64,000 nucleotides of DNA, from assembly GCA_003249955.1 (NCBI GenBank), contig QKHS01000012.1:1-64000 (forward strand), in the 5' to 3' direction. Position numbers and translations under genes: made by a program. Source of the DNA: Bacteroidales bacterium. GTDB taxonomy: Bacteria > Bacteroidota > Bacteroidia > Bacteroidales > ML635J-15. Positions 53,861-64,000 of this stretch are shown here, piece after piece (within the stretch, counting starts at the first letter, position 1; the number at the start of each line of letters is the position of its first letter). A model generated the notes under the pieces. That model searched no databases. It had not been told where the DNA came from and saw only the letters and a list, made by a program, of their open reading frames with translations.

Positions 53861-54499
53861 TTAGTTTTGAAGGTAAGCATTCACTACTGTTGTAAGGTTT
53901 AATTCAAATGCCCTAAATGCTTCCAGTTGCCTTAACGTGTTAAATTCTTTGATGTTTTCAGCCACAAGATGCACGGCTTTGTGAGCATTAAATTTTTGAA
54001 GATTCCGGCCTTTTAAACCACTTGCCTGTTCGAGTAAACCGTGTAATTTTTTTTTCGGTTGAGATTCTTTTTCTAATTTATTTACAGGCGGCAATACAAT
54101 TGGTCCTGAATAATTACGATTTCCGGATGCTTTTTTTATGGCTTCTGTATCAATCATCAGCCATGTTTCCATCATCTTTACAGGAATAATACATACAACT
54201 TTTGCAAACTCATCTTCCCCGATTTCTTCTTTAATTTGTTGTTGCCTTTCCTGTATTGTTTTTACATTTATTGTTTCCGCATCGCGGTGAATAAACAGTA
54301 TGTTATACGGGAAATAATACTTAGCCTGTACCAGTTTGCTTTTCAGAGTTTTTGGAGGATCAGGCAAATATCTGAAATCGGCAAACTCTCCATCATTTGA
54401 TATTTCTGGATATAAATCGTCCAAAAGCCATTTTATAATTCTCAATAAGGTTTTATCTGAACTTCCATCTGCTATTAATGTGAATTTAATTTTCTGCAT
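53861..54499 (-). CDS. DUF4276/RloB-like TOPRIM-fold protein
   Basis: FTLIADGSSDKTLLRIIKWLLDDLYP..ILFIHRDAE..CIIPVKMMETWLMIDTEAIKKASG; adjacent to AAA ATPase. Confidence 0.65.
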   Translation of the reverse strand: MQKIKFTLIADGSSDKTLLRIIKWLLDDLYPEISNDGEFADFRYLPDPPKTLKSKLVQAKYYFPYNILFIHRDAETINVKTIQERQQQIKEEIGEDEFAKVVCIIPVKMMETWLMIDTEAIKKASGNRNYSGPIVLPPVNKLEKESQPKKKLHGLLEQASGLKGRNLQKFNAHKAVHLVAENIKEFNTLRQLEAFRAFELNLTTVVNAYLQN

Positions 54500-54504
54500 A
54501 TGTT

Positions 54505-55983
54505 TTATTCAAAATTCATTCTCGATTGACGTAAATTTTCAATTACAGTTCTTTTTTTTGTTCTCTTTTGCGGAATACTTGTATAAACAGATCCCGGCTC
54601 TGCAGCAATCATTTCTTTAATGGATTGAATCTCAATTTTTTTATCGAGATAAGCAAGTATTTCTCCGATTGAGGAACTTTCGGCCAGATTGTTTGAGGTC
54701 TTCCATGTGTCCGGCATAGCTGAAAAACCTGTAAATTGTATTTTTCGTTTAAAAATTTCGTTGTACATTTCTTCCGATTTGGCAAGATACAGGCTTTCAT
54801 CCGGTACACTGCCAATTACAATCGGAGAGTGTGTATTGATTATTACCTGTCGTAACGAATTGTCTTCGTCAACGGCATAGTCAGTATCTGTTGCCATATC
54901 TTGCAACAGATCTACCATTTCATATATTTTTTTAGGGTTTATACCATTTTCCGGTTCTTCAAGGCATATTACACGGCTTCCGGCATTATCCTGTTCTATT
55001 ACGGCAAGTCCGAGAAACCGCAGAGTGCCGTCGGACAACGATTGTGCCGGAAGTGTAAGCCCATCTTTAAATACTACCTGCAATGTCAGCAAATCACGTT
55101 TTTCGTCTTTATCAATAGTTATCCCGTCAACATTGTGAACAAGATCTGCGAGCTTATTGGTAAGATTCTGATAAATGTCTCTGTCTTTACGCTCCTGTTG
55201 AAGTCTGTATAGAGTGGCCGGCAGATTTAGCCCGTTTGCCTGAATCTCAGCATTTTTTACTTCATAAATCCGGTTAGGTTCCCGCAATGCTCTGGGTTCA
55301 AACTGCAACATAATCCAGCTTCGCATTTCCTGACGTGCAATAAATGCTGTCGGAGATTCGGCAGTAACTGTAGAAAGTAAAGTCCGGGGCATTCTTTGAG
55401 CAATAAAATCGGTAGTGCGACCTTTATTCCCATCCTGATGAAGTTTTATTTTTCCGTTTTCTGTAGAGATAAAAGGGGTGCTTGTTGAACGTCTGCCTGC
55501 TAATATTGAATCAATCCAGTCTTTTTTGAATTCAAATTTCAGGTTTTTTTTAGTGTCTGATAATGTAATAGGATTCAGTGATTCATGGACAATCTCAATC
55601 GGTTCATTTTCATCTGTTTCGCTGTTGAGTTTAAGTTTAAGATTGTACCGTAAACTTGTAATTGTGGCTTCTGCTGTTTGTCCCAAATCGTCAATCCCTG
55701 TTCCGGGGATTAACATATCCGCTTCGAATTCCATATAACTCATATAACCGGAACCACTCCGGAAAAATATATCACGGATGTTGGAATGCTTCTGATTTTC
55801 GCCCCTTACCGATTTACTGGCCTCAACAATAGTTTTATCTGCCAGATTTGAAAGGAAAGATAATGCATCAAAAAAGTTTGATTTTCCTATGTCATTGGCA
55901 CCTGCTATACATGTAAAAGGACCAAAATAAAGATTGGTGTTTACCAAACTTTTAAACCCATCTATTTTAATTCTTGTTATCAT
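54505..55983 (-). CDS. AAA family ATPase (AAA_21/SMC-like)
   Basis: ITRIKIDGFKSLVNTNLYFGPFTCIAGANDIGKSNFFDALSFL; SLSDGTLRFLGLAVIEQDNAGSRVICLEEPENGINPKKI; IINTHSPIVI. Confidence 0.93.
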   Translation of the reverse strand: MITRIKIDGFKSLVNTNLYFGPFTCIAGANDIGKSNFFDALSFLSNLADKTIVEASKSVRGENQKHSNIRDIFFRSGSGYMSYMEFEADMLIPGTGIDDLGQTAEATITSLRYNLKLKLNSETDENEPIEIVHESLNPITLSDTKKNLKFEFKKDWIDSILAGRRSTSTPFISTENGKIKLHQDGNKGRTTDFIAQRMPRTLLSTVTAESPTAFIARQEMRSWIMLQFEPRALREPNRIYEVKNAEIQANGLNLPATLYRLQQERKDRDIYQNLTNKLADLVHNVDGITIDKDEKRDLLTLQVVFKDGLTLPAQSLSDGTLRFLGLAVIEQDNAGSRVICLEEPENGINPKKIYEMVDLLQDMATDTDYAVDEDNSLRQVIINTHSPIVIGSVPDESLYLAKSEEMYNEIFKRKIQFTGFSAMPDTWKTSNNLAESSSIGEILAYLDKKIEIQSIKEMIAAEPGSVYTSIPQKRTKKRTVIENLRQSRMNFE

Positions 55984-58198: not shown

Positions 58199-58978
58199 TC
58201 AGTGCAGCGGTTGTTTAAACATTATTCTCATTGCATTGAACAATTCCGGATGTTCATGCCGGAAATCATCAGGCCTTTCAAAAAAATATTCGGAAATAAC
58301 AGCCAGAAATTCTCCTGCATTTTTTGCAGCATACGGATGAATGTCTGAATACCCGTCTTTAATTCGTCTGATCTCTCTGTTCATAAGAAACATCCATGGA
58401 ATAGTGTATTTTTGAGGGAGTAATATTTCAGGAATGCCGTCAATTTTCCCGTCTTCCTTGTCAATAAGATGGATAAACTCGTGAATACAGGTATTTCTTT
58501 TATCTGAAAAATTATCGTAGCCTTCAAACAATGCTTTTCTCGAAATCAGTAGTTTCCTGTCGAGATAGCCAAACCCGACCAATCCCAGGTATAAACTGTC
58601 AGTCTGTCCGGTTTTATAGTTCTCGTTAAAATTATCAGGATACAGGATTATTTCATCAAGCATTCTGTACTTCCAGTCGGGAAAAGCAAAAATGGGAATT
58701 ATTGCAGAAGAGGCGATTAAAATAATGTCTTCGTCGGTCACAGAAGTTTCCACACCCCTTATTTTGCAGTATCTCAGAAATTGTTCAACTTTATATTCGA
58801 ATAAGGTCTTTTCAGAAGGGTCAAGCCTTTTATAAAATTCAATTTTTTCGGAAAGAATTTTTCTCCATATATCAGGAAACCTGCGTGACGGTATTTTTGC
58901 CCAATCGCGGATATTAGCTATAAAAACGATAGAAGCAATTGCTGCAACAACGAAAAGGAAAATAAAAGGAGATCCCAT
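58199..58978 (-). CDS. MtfA-like (M90) zinc-dependent peptidase, copy 1
   Basis: HEFIHLIDKEDGKIDGIP (HExxH), FLMNREIRRIKDGYSDIHPYAAKNAGEFLAVISEYFFERPDDF. Confidence 0.88.
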   Translation of the reverse strand: MGSPFIFLFVVAAIASIVFIANIRDWAKIPSRRFPDIWRKILSEKIEFYKRLDPSEKTLFEYKVEQFLRYCKIRGVETSVTDEDIILIASSAIIPIFAFPDWKYRMLDEIILYPDNFNENYKTGQTDSLYLGLVGFGYLDRKLLISRKALFEGYDNFSDKRNTCIHEFIHLIDKEDGKIDGIPEILLPQKYTIPWMFLMNREIRRIKDGYSDIHPYAAKNAGEFLAVISEYFFERPDDFRHEHPELFNAMRIMFKQPLH

Positions 58979-58990
58979 AATTTAATAATT

Positions 58991-59788
58991 TTACTGCTTG
59001 ATGGTTCTTCTTGGCAATGGCTGGCGGAACATAATTCTTAATGCATTGAACAGCTCAGGATGCTCATACTGAAAATCATCGGGTCTTTCGAAAAAATATT
59101 CGGAAACGACAGCCAGAAATTCGCCGGCGTTTTTAGTTGCATATGGATGAATATCAGATTCGCCGGCATTAATCCGTTTCATTTCCCTGTTCATAAGAAA
59201 CATCCATGGAATTGCATATTTATGTTCAAGAAGTCTGGACGGAATTCCGTCAATTTTGCTGTCTTCTTTGTCAATCAAATGAATAAATTCGTGAAGGCAG
59301 GTATTACGCTTATCCGAAAAGTCATCAAAGCCTTCGTATAAGGCTGTTCTGGAAATAAGTAATTTTCCGTCCAGATGCCCGAAGCCTACAAGTCCGCGAT
59401 AATATCTGTCGGGACCTGTGGTTAAAAAGTTTTCGTTAAAATTGTCAGGATAAACCAGAACTTCTTCCAGCACGGAATATTCCCAGTCAGGATAAGCAAA
59501 TACCGGTATTATAGCTGATGCTGCAATCAGAATTTTGTCGGTATCATTAACAACAGTGTCAACGCCGGTTATTTTATACCTGGCTAAAAATTCCTGTACT
59601 TTTCTCTCAAAAAGTTCTTTGCCTTTATCGTTAAGGCGGGAATAGTATTTTACATTATAATTAAGTAGCCCCTTTCTTTCTTCGGACATTTTAGCAACCC
59701 GGCTTTGGCTGAGTAAACCTTTTTTCCAGGAAAATAACAAAACAGCAATGATTAATACAGCAACAACAACCAGAAAAGAATCTTCCAT
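58991..59788 (-). CDS. MtfA-like (M90) zinc-dependent peptidase, copy 2
   Basis: HEFIHLIDKEDSKIDGIP, FLMNREMKRINAGESDIHPYATKNAGEFLAVVSEYFFERPDDF; closely similar to copy 1. Confidence 0.88.
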   Translation of the reverse strand: MEDSFLVVVAVLIIAVLLFSWKKGLLSQSRVAKMSEERKGLLNYNVKYYSRLNDKGKELFERKVQEFLARYKITGVDTVVNDTDKILIAASAIIPVFAYPDWEYSVLEEVLVYPDNFNENFLTTGPDRYYRGLVGFGHLDGKLLISRTALYEGFDDFSDKRNTCLHEFIHLIDKEDSKIDGIPSRLLEHKYAIPWMFLMNREMKRINAGESDIHPYATKNAGEFLAVVSEYFFERPDDFQYEHPELFNALRIMFRQPLPRRTIKQ

Positions 59789-61176: not shown

Positions 61177-61878
61177 ATGGGTATAAAAGTTACAGGCAAA
61201 GACCTTATAAAAATTGCAAACTCAGACGATGTTTTCGGGATAATGCAAAGAGTGCTGTTCCGTGAGAATAAATTAGACAGAGAAAAAGAACATTTCTGGT
61301 TAGTTGGTTTAAACAGTGTCAATAAAATGCTTTTTGTTGAATTAATAAGCATAGGCGGAGTAAAAAGCACAACCGTGGAACCAATGAATGTTTTCAGAAT
61401 GTCGATTTTAAAAGGAGCTGTTAAAGTAATTTTGGTTCATAACCACCCATCCGGAGAAGTAATTCCCTCAGATGCAGATCTTGATCTAACCGACCGCCTT
61501 ATACAAGCCGGAAAAATAATAGATATAGATGTTGTTGACCACCTTGTAATATCAGAAAATACCTACCTGAGTTTTAGCAAAACCGGGCGCATGAAACAAC
61601 TCGAAGAAAGCACCAAATGGGTTCCGGCTTACGAACTTATCAAGCGCATAAAAAAACAGGAAGCAGAACTTAGAAAAGAAGCCGTAAAAATTGCCAAGGA
61701 AAAAGGAGAAAAAGACGGAATAAAAAAGGGTAAAATTGAAGGGATTGCAGAGGGTGAAAAGCTGGGAATAGAAAAAAATAAACTGGAAATGGCAAAACAA
61801 ATGAGAGCCAATAATGAACCAATTGAAAAAATAGTATTATATACCGGTCTTACTAAAGCTGAGATAGAGAAGCTGTAG
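61177..61878 (+). CDS. RadC-like JAB/MPN domain protein with Rpn-like C-terminal tail
   Basis: JAMM motif VILVHNHPSGEVIPSDADLDLTDRLIQAGKIIDIDVVDHLVIS; C-term KEKGEKDGIKKGKIEGIAEGEKLGIEKNK..MRANNEPIEKIVLYTGLTKAEIEKL. Confidence 0.85.
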   Translation: MGIKVTGKDLIKIANSDDVFGIMQRVLFRENKLDREKEHFWLVGLNSVNKMLFVELISIGGVKSTTVEPMNVFRMSILKGAVKVILVHNHPSGEVIPSDADLDLTDRLIQAGKIIDIDVVDHLVISENTYLSFSKTGRMKQLEESTKWVPAYELIKRIKKQEAELRKEAVKIAKEKGEKDGIKKGKIEGIAEGEKLGIEKNKLEMAKQMRANNEPIEKIVLYTGLTKAEIEKL

Positions 61879-62448
61879 AATAAAACAGTCCATAGTATAA
61901 TTTTAACACCAACTTTTCCATAATTTATTTCAGGTGTTTTGCCGGGATTATTCGTATTTCTATAAGAAGAATCATAAAACTTTTGCTACTCATTTATTAG
62001 AAAATATAGTAGCTATTTGGGATGTTTAAAAGTGCATTAGGCTATGCTAACAGTAACATGTCAGCTTAACGGCAAATGAAAATTGTAAAATAAAAAACTT
62101 TGAATAGTTTGTGTTTATAGAAATTATTGAGTGCTTTCACTAAAAAAATATATGATAAGTGTTGTGTGATAAAAACATTATATATATTTGAAAAATATTA
62201 ATGATGGGAATTGAAATAAGATAATTAATATGAAAAATTGATAAAAGTGTTGAAAAAACTATTAACTATGAATTTTGTAATTAATATTCGGTTATTAATA
62301 AATAATGGAGGGCTAATTTGAAATATATTACACCCAAAGGTGTGGTTATACACCCAAAACAGCAGTATAAAAACACTTTTAGTGTGGTGACAAGGGAGTT
62401 GTGCAACATAGCAAAAAAGACACACTGCAATAAATTAGAATAATTGAT

Positions 62449-64000
62449 ATGAATTCAGAGATACAAATAATACTTGAAGAACAAAATCCCTACACACAGG
62501 GTAATTGCTTTGAAAAATTAGTTCGTGATATCATCGAACTTCATAGATATGAGGTGAGTTCAAATGTCAACTATACTGGAATGGAACTTGACCTAACAGC
62601 GAAACATAAAGACAAATCTAATGAATCTTTATACGTTGAATGTAAAGCTAAGAATAAGGTGAGCTCCTCTGAAATATTGACTTTTGAAGCAAAGGTTCGG
62701 TTTAAAAAAGTCGATTTCGGATATTTCATAAGGACAAAAGAATTAGACCATCAGGCTAAAGGACTTGTTGATGAATTTAAGGCAGATGAAAGATATAAAA
62801 ACCTCACATTTTTTGAACCTCAAAAAGTGATTAGCCTATTACAAGAATCTGGAAAAATAAAAACAATAGAAAATCTACACGAAGATTTTACCAAGCAAAT
62901 ATTGGTAATTACATACTTTGGAGATTATTATGTATTTATTAAAAAGGATACTTTAGCTGCTATTCCGAACTCTTTTTATTTGTTTAATGCCAAAAATTCA
63001 AAACCAGTCAAAGATTCCGAAACTATTGAAAGACTGAAAAATAATCTGAATGAAATTAAAGATTTAAATATTGAACATCCCACAAAAGAAGAATTACCTA
63101 TTACAAAAAAAGATTTAGTCGAGATTGAATCTATTTCGGAAGTTCAAGAAAGTGAAAATTGGTTTGATTATCTTCCTGCATCTACAAATCATATTGTTGG
63201 TAGGGACCTTATAAGAAGTGATGTTTTTGGTTTTTTTGGTAAAGTATTAAATAAAGAAACAAAAAGGAGAGTTTTTTATTTGACTGGAAAATCGGGATGG
63301 GGAAAAAGTTCGTTGATTGCAGATGTTAGAGGGCGTTGTCGCAATAAATTTTATAAGAATAAATTTTTTACTTTAGCTATTGACTCAAGGAGTGCCTTAT
63401 CTTCTAATTTTGTTGCCCTTGCGTTTGAACGACTATTGAAAAATGCTATAAATTCTGGTTTTATTAAAAAAACAATTTTCAACAAAGAAATTAGTTTTAC
63501 ATCTTCATATGATTTATTAAACTCAGAATCAGTAAAAGAGGTATTGGAATATTTAAAAGCTCATAACAAAATCTTAATTTTAATATTTGACCAGTTTGAA
63601 GATATTTTCAGAAAAGAAGACCTATTTAAAACGTTTTACAAATTTTTACTTGATGTTACTGATTTACAAGAAAACTTAATTATAGGTTTTTCTTGGAAAA
63701 CTGAAATTCTTATACCTAGTGAAAACGAAGCGTATCATTTGTGGCAGCAAGCAAAAGAGCAAGCGCAACCTTTTTTTATTTCTGAATTTGGCTCAAAAGA
63801 AATTAATGGTATTATATCTCAACTTGAAGGTAGTATTGGGAAAATAGATATTGAATTAAAAAGAAGATTAGTTGAAAGTTCTCAAAACTTCCCTTGGTTA
63901 ACAAAAAAACTTTGCATCCATATTTATGACCAGATAATATCAGGAAAAGAAAAGTATGATTTAATTGATGAGAATTTAAATATTGAGCAATTATTTAAAA
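62449..64000 (+). CDS. Restriction-endonuclease-like (PD-(D/E)XK) - STAND/AAA NTPase fusion (partial, runs off right edge)
   Basis: Manual translation from ATG 62449: MNSEIQIILEEQNPYTQGNCFEKLVRDIIELHRYEVSSNVNYTGMELDLTAKHKDKSNESLYVECKAKNKV (ExD...ECKAK nuclease core); later FYLTGKSGWGKSSLIADVRGRC (Walker A) and NKILILIFDQFEDIF (Walker B/STAND). No stop codon seen in this frame through 64000; absent from the ORF track. Confidence 0.75.
   Translation, partial: MNSEIQIILEEQNPYTQGNCFEKLVRDIIELHRYEVSSNVNYTGMELDLTAKHKDKSNESLYVECKAKNKVSSSEILTFEAKVRFKKVDFGYFIRTKELDHQAKGLVDEFKADERYKNLTFFEPQKVISLLQESGKIKTIENLHEDFTKQILVITYFGDYYVFIKKDTLAAIPNSFYLFNAKNSKPVKDSETIERLKNNLNEIKDLNIEHPTKEELPITKKDLVEIESISEVQESENWFDYLPASTNHIVGRDLIRSDVFGFFGKVLNKETKRRVFYLTGKSGWGKSSLIADVRGRCRNKFYKNKFFTLAIDSRSALSSNFVALAFERLLKNAINSGFIKKTIFNKEISFTSSYDLLNSESVKEVLEYLKAHNKILILIFDQFEDIFRKEDLFKTFYKFLLDVTDLQENLIIGFSWKTEILIPSENEAYHLWQQAKEQAQPFFISEFGSKEINGIISQLEGSIGKIDIELKRRLVESSQNFPWLTKKLCIHIYDQIISGKEKYDLIDENLNIEQLFK

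What the first reader, a model, noticed from the sequence alone, without database searches (positions are those of the whole stretch)
62449..64000. Truncated nuclease-STAND NTPase: candidate antiviral (Avs-like) gene, missing from the ORF track
Seen: N-terminal Mrr/PD-(D/E)XK-like core (MELDLTAKHKD...LYVECKAKNK), then Walker A GKSGWGKSS and an LILIFDQFEDIF Walker B/STAND signature. Family knowledge: nuclease-STAND-sensor architecture is that of Avs proteins and related nSTAND effectors. Inference: the unseen C-terminus would be the phage sensor. It lies in a defence-rich right arm (AAA+TOPRIM pair, RadC-like gene), after a ~570-bp AT-rich gap.
Basis: partly seen in the sequence, partly recalled or inferred. 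Interest (0 to 1): 0.72.

Follow-up and report, generated by a model that had tools for sequence, protein, structure and literature searches.

The report
Nuclease-STAND protein with winged-helix repeats

Summary
The ORF at 62449 is cut only by the window edge; in the assembly it is an intact 902-aa gene, 62449-65157. Its Mrr-type nuclease (E22/D48/E64/K66) and STAND NTPase (GxGKSS, DQFE) are conserved across a full-length family (21-51% identical to this protein) in Bacteroidota, Campylobacterota, Bacillota, Proteobacteria, Cyanobacteria and Actinomycetota.

The unseen C-terminus is no Avs-type TPR sensor. It is a fast-evolving array of a ~130-165-aa winged-helix unit: two copies here, three in a congener, apparently one in Nostoc. 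No PADLOC model matches. Avs membership is rejected; "works like a nuclease-STAND immune switch" is kept.

A defence role is supported by rarity (about 1% of genomes or less), low GC (28% vs 36%), plasmid and Rac-prophage homes, and one striking context: in two Campylobacterota genomes the gene sits between the R and M genes of an NgoPII-type restriction-modification operon. That junction is empty in 9 of 13 callable loci; three others hold a PtuA-like ATPase, ThsB-like TIR proteins, or an unknown 613-aa protein. E. coli copies (35 of 5,426 genomes) make it directly testable. Trigger and DNA cutting remain inferred.

The parts
62449..64000 (+). Mrr nuclease - STAND NTPase - winged-helix repeat gene; visible part only, the gene continues to 65157 of the contig (902 aa)
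62449..62853 (+). Mrr-type PD-(D/E)XK nuclease domain, residues 1-135; invariant E22 (62512-62514), D48 (62590-62592), E64 (62638-62640), K66 (62644-62646)
   Evidence: Mrr_cat PF04471 E 4.7e-9; invariant columns; alpha-beta-beta-beta-alpha-beta core in the model
62854..63168 (+). Linker, residues 136-240, small mixed alpha/beta region, fast-evolving
   Evidence: model; median pairwise identity 22%
63169..63693 (+). STAND NTPase core, residues 241-415
   Evidence: nSTAND1 PF20703 matched by all 16 family members, best E 1e-11
63286..63312 (+). Walker A GKSGWGKSS, residues 280-288
   Evidence: sequence; GxGKSS invariant
63574..63609 (+). Walker B / STAND signature LILIFDQFEDIF, residues 376-387
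   Evidence: sequence; DQFE invariant
63694..64000 (+). Start of the helical and winged-helix part of the STAND module (residues 416-600, continues past the window), with the GxP-region motif NFPWLTK; the C-terminal repeat array (residues 600-895) lies wholly outside the window
   Evidence: PWLxK invariant; repeat array
61879..62448 (.). AT-rich intergenic gap upstream, probably part of the acquired low-GC segment
   Evidence: 24-30% GC; no Rfam hit
61177..61878 (+). RadC-like JAB domain gene, neighbour, also absent from the syntenic congener
   Evidence: PF04002 E 1.7e-34
53861..55983 (-). AAA ATPase (54505-55983) plus DUF4276 partner (53861-54499), HEC-01-like candidate defence pair, a separate acquisition nearby
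   Evidence: PADLOC; Pfam; absent from syntenic L038

Best explanation
A single-gene, horizontally moving antiviral switch. At rest the STAND NTPase holds the protein inactive. The fast-evolving C-terminal winged-helix repeat array recognises an invader cue; I favour foreign or modified DNA, or a DNA-bound phage complex, over a free phage protein. Recognition lets ATP drive opening and self-assembly, which brings the N-terminal Mrr nuclease domains together so that they cut DNA and stop the infection, probably at the cost of the cell. Shown here by sequence: intact catalytic and NTPase motifs, the repeat array, mobility, and placement among defence genes. Inferred from other STAND proteins: autoinhibition, oligomerisation, DNA cutting, cell death. 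Inferred from fold only: DNA as the cue.
For: Nuclease residues E22/D48/E64/K66, Walker A GxGKSS, Walker B DQFE and PWLxK invariant across members from several phyla. C-terminal tandem repeat, hhalign probability 97.4, E 1.4e-11; third copy in L036; wHTH by sequence profile (2d1h E 2e-4; Csa3/CasR wHTH models on the L010 protein). Sensor-like fast evolution of the C-terminus: 18% median identity against 31-38% for nuclease, NTPase and WHD. Mobility: 27.9% GC against 35.7%, absent from the syntenic congener L038, absent from 24 of 25 other genomes of the genus, about 1% or less per phylum, plasmids and integrase neighbours, E. coli Rac prophage. Defence company: same R|M slot as PtuA-like, ThsB-like and PDC-M50 genes; PifA-like and Fic-like candidates downstream of L011.
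Against: No phage assay was possible. No PDB fold match at E <= 0.001 for the C-terminal part. Most homologs were seen as single genes whose neighbours are not all defence genes. In the window itself only one other PADLOC-like pair lies nearby. Winged helices can also bind proteins.
Confidence: 0.66

Rival explanations
1. Avs-like: the C-terminal array recognises a conserved phage protein (terminase, portal or similar), as in Avs1-4, and the winged helices serve only as a protein-binding scaffold; nuclease firing then works as in Avs.
For: Same nuclease-STAND order as Avs1-4, and Avs4 is among the best fold matches. Avs sensors are also fast-evolving C-terminal repeat arrays (PMC12931631).
Against: No TPR-like array; no PADLOC match; the C-terminal units look like winged helices, a fold most often used on DNA.
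Confidence: 0.2
2. Guard of restriction-modification: like PrrC, the protein is held silent by a linked R-M enzyme and fires when a phage inhibitor disables that enzyme.
For: In L010 and L011 it sits inside an NgoPII R-M operon; a protein sharing only the N-terminal module sits between hsdS and hsdR in L062; PrrC precedent (PMC2610378).
Against: Most full-length members, including this one, are not next to R-M genes. The same slot holds unrelated defence genes, which reads as a cargo site rather than a specific partnership.
Confidence: 0.07
3. Modification-dependent (type IV-like) restriction enzyme: the winged-helix array binds modified DNA and the NTPase drives local cutting, without STAND-type assembly or cell death.
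For: Mrr-type nuclease; winged-helix repeats; RefSeq names several members 'restriction endonuclease'.
Against: The NTPase carries STAND motifs (DQFE, GxP region) typical of switches rather than translocases. Coexistence with an m5C methyltransferase in L010 and L011 excludes simple targeting of that modification.
Confidence: 0.05
4. Not defence: a plasmid or chromosome maintenance or regulatory ATPase related to ORC/Cdc6-type initiators.
For: ORC/Cdc6 and a Pyrococcus Walker ATPase are among the best fold matches; several homologs are on plasmids.
Against: The invariant nuclease, the very sparse distribution, and the defence-slot and prophage locations.
Confidence: 0.02

Closest known systems
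Avs1-Avs4 (AVAST) nuclease-STAND immune receptors
   Same: N-terminal nuclease, central STAND NTPase, C-terminal repeat array that diverges fast; Avs4 among the best fold matches
   Different: Sensor is winged-helix repeats instead of TPR-like repeats; 902 aa against about 1,540; no PADLOC model matches
nSTAND1 family (Pfam PF20703) and RefSeq 'nSTAND1 domain-containing NTPase'
   Same: NTPase domain matched by all 16 members; this RefSeq name is used for E. coli members
   Different: The name covers only the NTPase; it says nothing about the Mrr domain, the repeat array or the function
PADLOC candidate PDC-S60 (nSTAND4 protein, seen in L062)
   Same: The L062 protein shares the N-terminal Mrr and linker module and also sits in an R-M operon
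   Different: Different NTPase (nSTAND4) and different C-terminus; only profile positions 4-217 align
Mrr-type (type IV) restriction enzymes
   Same: Mrr_cat catalytic domain with conserved E/D/ExK
   Different: Mrr itself has no NTPase and no C-terminal repeat array (own knowledge)
BrxC / DUF499-type ORC/Cdc6 ATPases of BREX and related systems
   Same: STAND/ORC-type ATPase followed by wHTH modules that vary in copy number (PMC12839542)
   Different: BrxC-type ATPases start with the ATPase and carry an alpha+beta domain between wHTHs; here a nuclease is N-terminal and no such domain was seen
PrrC / RloC restriction-linked nucleases
   Same: NTPase-nuclease genes found as inserts in R-M loci (PMC2610378), as here in L010, L011 and L062
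   Different: ABC-type ATPase and tRNA anticodon nuclease; known for type I loci, whereas L010 and L011 are an NgoPII-type operon; most members of this family are not R-M linked

Membership tests
STAND superfamily (nSTAND1/AAA_16 type) | P-loop NTPase with Walker A and DQFE-type Walker B | tested here: met
   Invariant GxGKSS and DQFE; nSTAND1 matched by all 16 members, best E 1e-11; this protein alone is 1.5 bits under the cut-off, the E. coli member is above it
STAND superfamily (nSTAND1/AAA_16 type) | GxP motif region and winged helix after the NTPase | tested here: met
   PWLxK invariant, preceded by QG in most members (QN here); helical then winged-helix region in the model
Mrr-type PD-(D/E)XK nucleases | Mrr_cat domain with D...ExK active site and helix glutamate | tested here: met
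   PF04471 E 4.7e-9 above cut-off; E22, D48, E64, K66 invariant; core topology in the model
Avs1-4 | N-terminal nuclease plus STAND NTPase | tested here: met
Avs1-4 | Large C-terminal TPR-like sensor array, chain about 1,500 aa (Avs4) | tested here: not met
   902 aa; C-terminus is winged-helix repeats; Avs4 chains 1,534-1,541 aa
Avs1-4 | Match to a PADLOC Avs model | tested here: not met
   No PADLOC family up to E 10; no Avs sequence was run as a positive control
Avs1-4 | Activation by phage terminase or portal, non-specific DNA cutting | not testable with these tools
   needs a wet assay
PrrC/RloC-type restriction-linked guards | Genetic linkage to a restriction-modification locus | tested here: inconclusive
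   True in L010 and L011; not seen in the window locus, L036, L017, L018 or L021
BrxC/DUF499-type ATPases | N-terminal ATPase, then wHTH, alpha+beta domain, wHTH | tested here: not met
   A nuclease precedes the ATPase and the C-terminus is alternating helical/wHTH units in the models; definition from PMC12839542
Any named defence system in PADLOC 2.0.0 | Whole-protein model match | tested here: not met
   This protein none; the L010 and L040 proteins match only wHTH, REase or ATPase fragments

The most novel reading that the evidence does not exclude
A nuclease-STAND immune receptor whose sensor is a copy-number-variable winged-helix repeat that reads DNA, rather than a TPR-like array that reads a phage protein. 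It is also one of several interchangeable defence cargos that insert between the R and M genes of a type II restriction-modification operon, the cargo's stop codon overlapping the methyltransferase's ATGA start.
Probability: 0.3. Interest if true: 0.74.

Novelty: new variant of a known kind. Interest (0 to 1): 0.55.

Why it matters
The Avs-type bacterial STAND receptors sense phage proteins with TPR-like repeats. A widespread branch that keeps the nuclease and NTPase but ends in a repeatable, fast-evolving winged-helix unit would show that the same switch can be wired to a different kind of cue, and its copy-number variation suggests how specificity might be tuned. The family has no model in the defence library used here, yet occurs in E. 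coli prophages and islands, so it can be tested at once. The R|M junction of NgoPII-type operons as a cargo site gives a simple rule for finding unknown defence genes, such as the 613-aa protein in L083.

Tried and rejected
Scans of viral contigs with five queries got no answer from the search machine, so phage-borne relatives beyond the annotated phage records (none) are unknown. The profile of the closest nine members found no PDB relative; the broader profile found wHTH, Mrr-like and AfsR matches. Foldseek of the C-terminal model gave no match at E <= 0.001, so I name no fold family beyond winged-helix-like. A viral structure library gave only generic AAA/RFC matches and one phage NLR-like protein. 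An RNA element in the upstream gap was rejected (no Rfam hit), and promoter-like sites there are not above chance. The RadC neighbour as a partner was set aside: a JAB gene lies near the Chryseobacterium plasmid copy too, but in the opposite orientation and on an element that also carries a zincin-like metallopeptidase gene, so I take it as coincidence. A general R-M guard role was rejected for the family because most members are not R-M linked. The Acinetobacter 'plasmid' hits lie in records of 0.66-4 Mb, which look like mislabelled chromosomes or very large replicons, so they were not used as evidence of plasmid carriage.

Full report
CHECK OF THE OBSERVATION. The ORF beginning at 62449 exists as described, with the quoted motifs. 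It is cut by the window edge only. The window is bases 1-64000 of a 327,133-bp contig, and there the gene is complete: ATG at 62449, stop ending at 65157, 902 aa, no internal stop. Pfam finds Mrr_cat at residues 19-109 (E 4.7e-9, above cut-off), nSTAND1 at 265-456 (E 1.2e-5, just below cut-off) and AAA_16. PADLOC finds nothing at E <= 10 and NCBIfam gives only sub-threshold hits.

FAMILY. Ten loci in genome contigs encode confirmed relatives at 39-51% identity; most are full length, L013 is a fragment and L012 is split into two frames. They come from Bacteroidota, a Clostridium and two Campylobacterota. Searching plasmid records by protein extends the family to Chryseobacterium, Acinetobacter, Burkholderia, Nostoc, Fuscovulum, Streptomyces, Rhodococcus and Enterobacteriaceae. 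In E. coli, 35 of 5,426 complete genomes carry it, annotated as "restriction endonuclease" or "nSTAND1 domain-containing NTPase". An E. coli protein aligns to the family profile over positions 12-801 (E 1.5e-117) and passes the Pfam cut-offs for both Mrr_cat and nSTAND1. Across the family E22, D48, E64 and K66 of the nuclease, GxGKSS of Walker A, DQFE of Walker B and PWLxK of the GxP region are invariant, except that two sequences lack an N-terminal stretch as annotated or assembled, so E22 (and in one D48) cannot be scored there.

C-TERMINUS. Residues 600-765 and 765-895 are two copies of the same two-part unit: a wHTH-like half plus a helical half ending in TWxxYAxxLIxW. Profile-profile comparison gives probability 97.4 and E 1.4e-11. 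A same-genus homolog of 1,036 aa (L036) has a third copy (E 3e-07 against its own earlier copy), and the 816-aa Nostoc protein appears, from length and alignment, to have one. By sequence profile residues 610-669 match a winged-helix regulator (2d1h, E 2e-4) and, weakly, Csa3. The AF2 model of the C-terminal part has pLDDT 85 with wHTH-like secondary structure. Foldseek finds no PDB entry at E <= 0.001 for this part, so the fold assignment is good but not proven. This region and the linker evolve fastest: median pairwise identity 18% and 22%, against 31% for the nuclease and 35-38% for the NTPase and WHD. That is what a sensor would do.

STRUCTURE. The full-length model of the L004 relative (51% identical; pLDDT 78.3, pTM 0.54, 12 sequences) shows the alpha-beta-beta-beta-alpha-beta nuclease core with the catalytic residues on adjacent strands, then an AAA+/STAND domain. 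Best PDB matches are a Pyrococcus Walker ATPase (2qen), Avs4 (8dgf, E 6e-8) and ORC/Cdc6 proteins; TM-scores are low because the match is to single domains. My reading is that nuclease and switch resemble Avs4 while the sensor does not.

MOBILITY AND CONTEXT. The gene is 27.9% GC, against 35.7% for the window. It is absent from 24 of the 25 other sampled genomes of its genus, some of them incomplete; the one congener copy (G421) is only 39% identical and sits elsewhere. A congener that is syntenic on both sides (L038) has the flanking helicase, peptidase, ABC-transporter and downstream genes but neither this gene, nor the RadC gene, nor the AAA-partner pair. Family prevalence is about 1% or less: 2 of 398 in its phylum, own genome included, 4 of 348 in that of L010 and 5 of 349 in that of L009, centres included; two of the second set and one of the third match only the N-terminal part, and one of the third is broken by stops. 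The tree mixes phyla: a Bacillota sequence pairs with a Burkholderia plasmid, and a Campylobacterota sequence sits with that group, away from L010 and L011. Homologs lie beside integrases or recombinases, in the E. coli Rac prophage, and in E. coli islands with antirestriction genes and, in one, a contact-dependent inhibition locus.

THE R|M SLOT. In L010 and L011 the gene lies between an NgoPII restriction enzyme (PF09521, nearly the full model) and a cytosine methyltransferase (PF00145), with a 4-nt overlap onto the methyltransferase start. To see whether this is an insertion I searched 250 genomes of that phylum for NgoPII. R and M are directly adjacent in nine loci, for example L087 and L088, whose R and M are 87-96% identical to those of L010. 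Four loci are occupied: L010 by this family, L084 by a PtuA-like ATPase, L086 by three genes including two ThsB-type TIR proteins and PDC-M50A, and L083 by a 613-aa protein with no Pfam or PADLOC match. In L010, L011, L083 and L084 the cargo ends on the ATGA that starts M; in L086 the last cargo gene runs into the start of M. The remaining three hits were degenerate or partial. A further relative that shares only the N-terminal nuclease and linker, with an nSTAND4 NTPase, lies between hsdS and hsdR of a type I system in L062 and matches PADLOC's PDC-S60. Inserts in type I loci are known: RloC-type genes were named as restriction-linked ORFs in C. jejuni, and PrrC is silenced by its linked type I enzyme and fires when a phage factor disables it (PMC2610378). 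I did not find a report of the same for NgoPII-type operons, but the literature search was limited to open papers.

MECHANISM. I propose that the winged-helix array senses the invader, the STAND domain switches and assembles, and the Mrr domains cut DNA, ending the infection. Shown: conserved catalytic parts, repeat sensor architecture, mobility, defence company. Inferred from other STAND proteins: autoinhibition, assembly, nuclease activation, cell sacrifice. Inferred from fold only: that the cue is DNA. The Avs-like alternative (phage-protein cue) remains possible.

MEMBERSHIP AND NOVELTY. It is a member of the STAND superfamily and carries a true Mrr-type nuclease domain. It is not an Avs by the tested sensor and model criteria, although it probably works in an Avs-like way. 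RefSeq already annotates its two domains in some members, but I found no named defence system or tested function, so I rate it a new variant of a known kind.

Noticed in passing
L083, L084, L086, L010, L011 (occupied R|M junctions); L087, L088 (empty): The junction between the R and M genes of NgoPII-type restriction-modification operons in Campylobacterota is an insertion slot for defence-like genes; each cargo overlaps the start of M.
   Followed up: partly
L083:5562-7403: A 613-aa protein of unknown family in the R|M slot, no Pfam or PADLOC match; a candidate new defence gene.
   Followed up: no
L062:3889-6753; L063:5245-8643: The N-terminal Mrr-plus-linker module is reused on other NTPases (nSTAND4), once between hsdS and hsdR of a type I system, and once, with a weaker Mrr match, behind a trypsin-like domain next to two cytosine methyltransferase genes.
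   Followed up: partly
window 53861-55983: A HEC-01-like AAA plus DUF4276 pair inserted between a DUF1456-like gene and a DEAD-box helicase; in the congener L038 these two genes are about 80 bp apart.
   Followed up: partly
window 58199-59788: Two tandem paralogous putative peptidase genes where the congener L038 has one.
   Followed up: no
L019, L039, L045, L047 (Enterobacteriaceae plasmids): Plasmid copies of the family disrupted near the N-terminus by or beside an IS3-family transposase, next to the psiE-GI/kefB-GI heat-resistance island in three of them; uninterrupted copies exist on E. coli chromosomes.
   Followed up: partly
L089:10717-12234, L090:10713-12230, L091:10715-12230: A ~505-aa protein of unknown family lies upstream of the E. 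coli copy in all three contexts examined (Rac prophage and two islands), with an IS30 remnant between, so the two genes may travel as one cassette.
   Followed up: no
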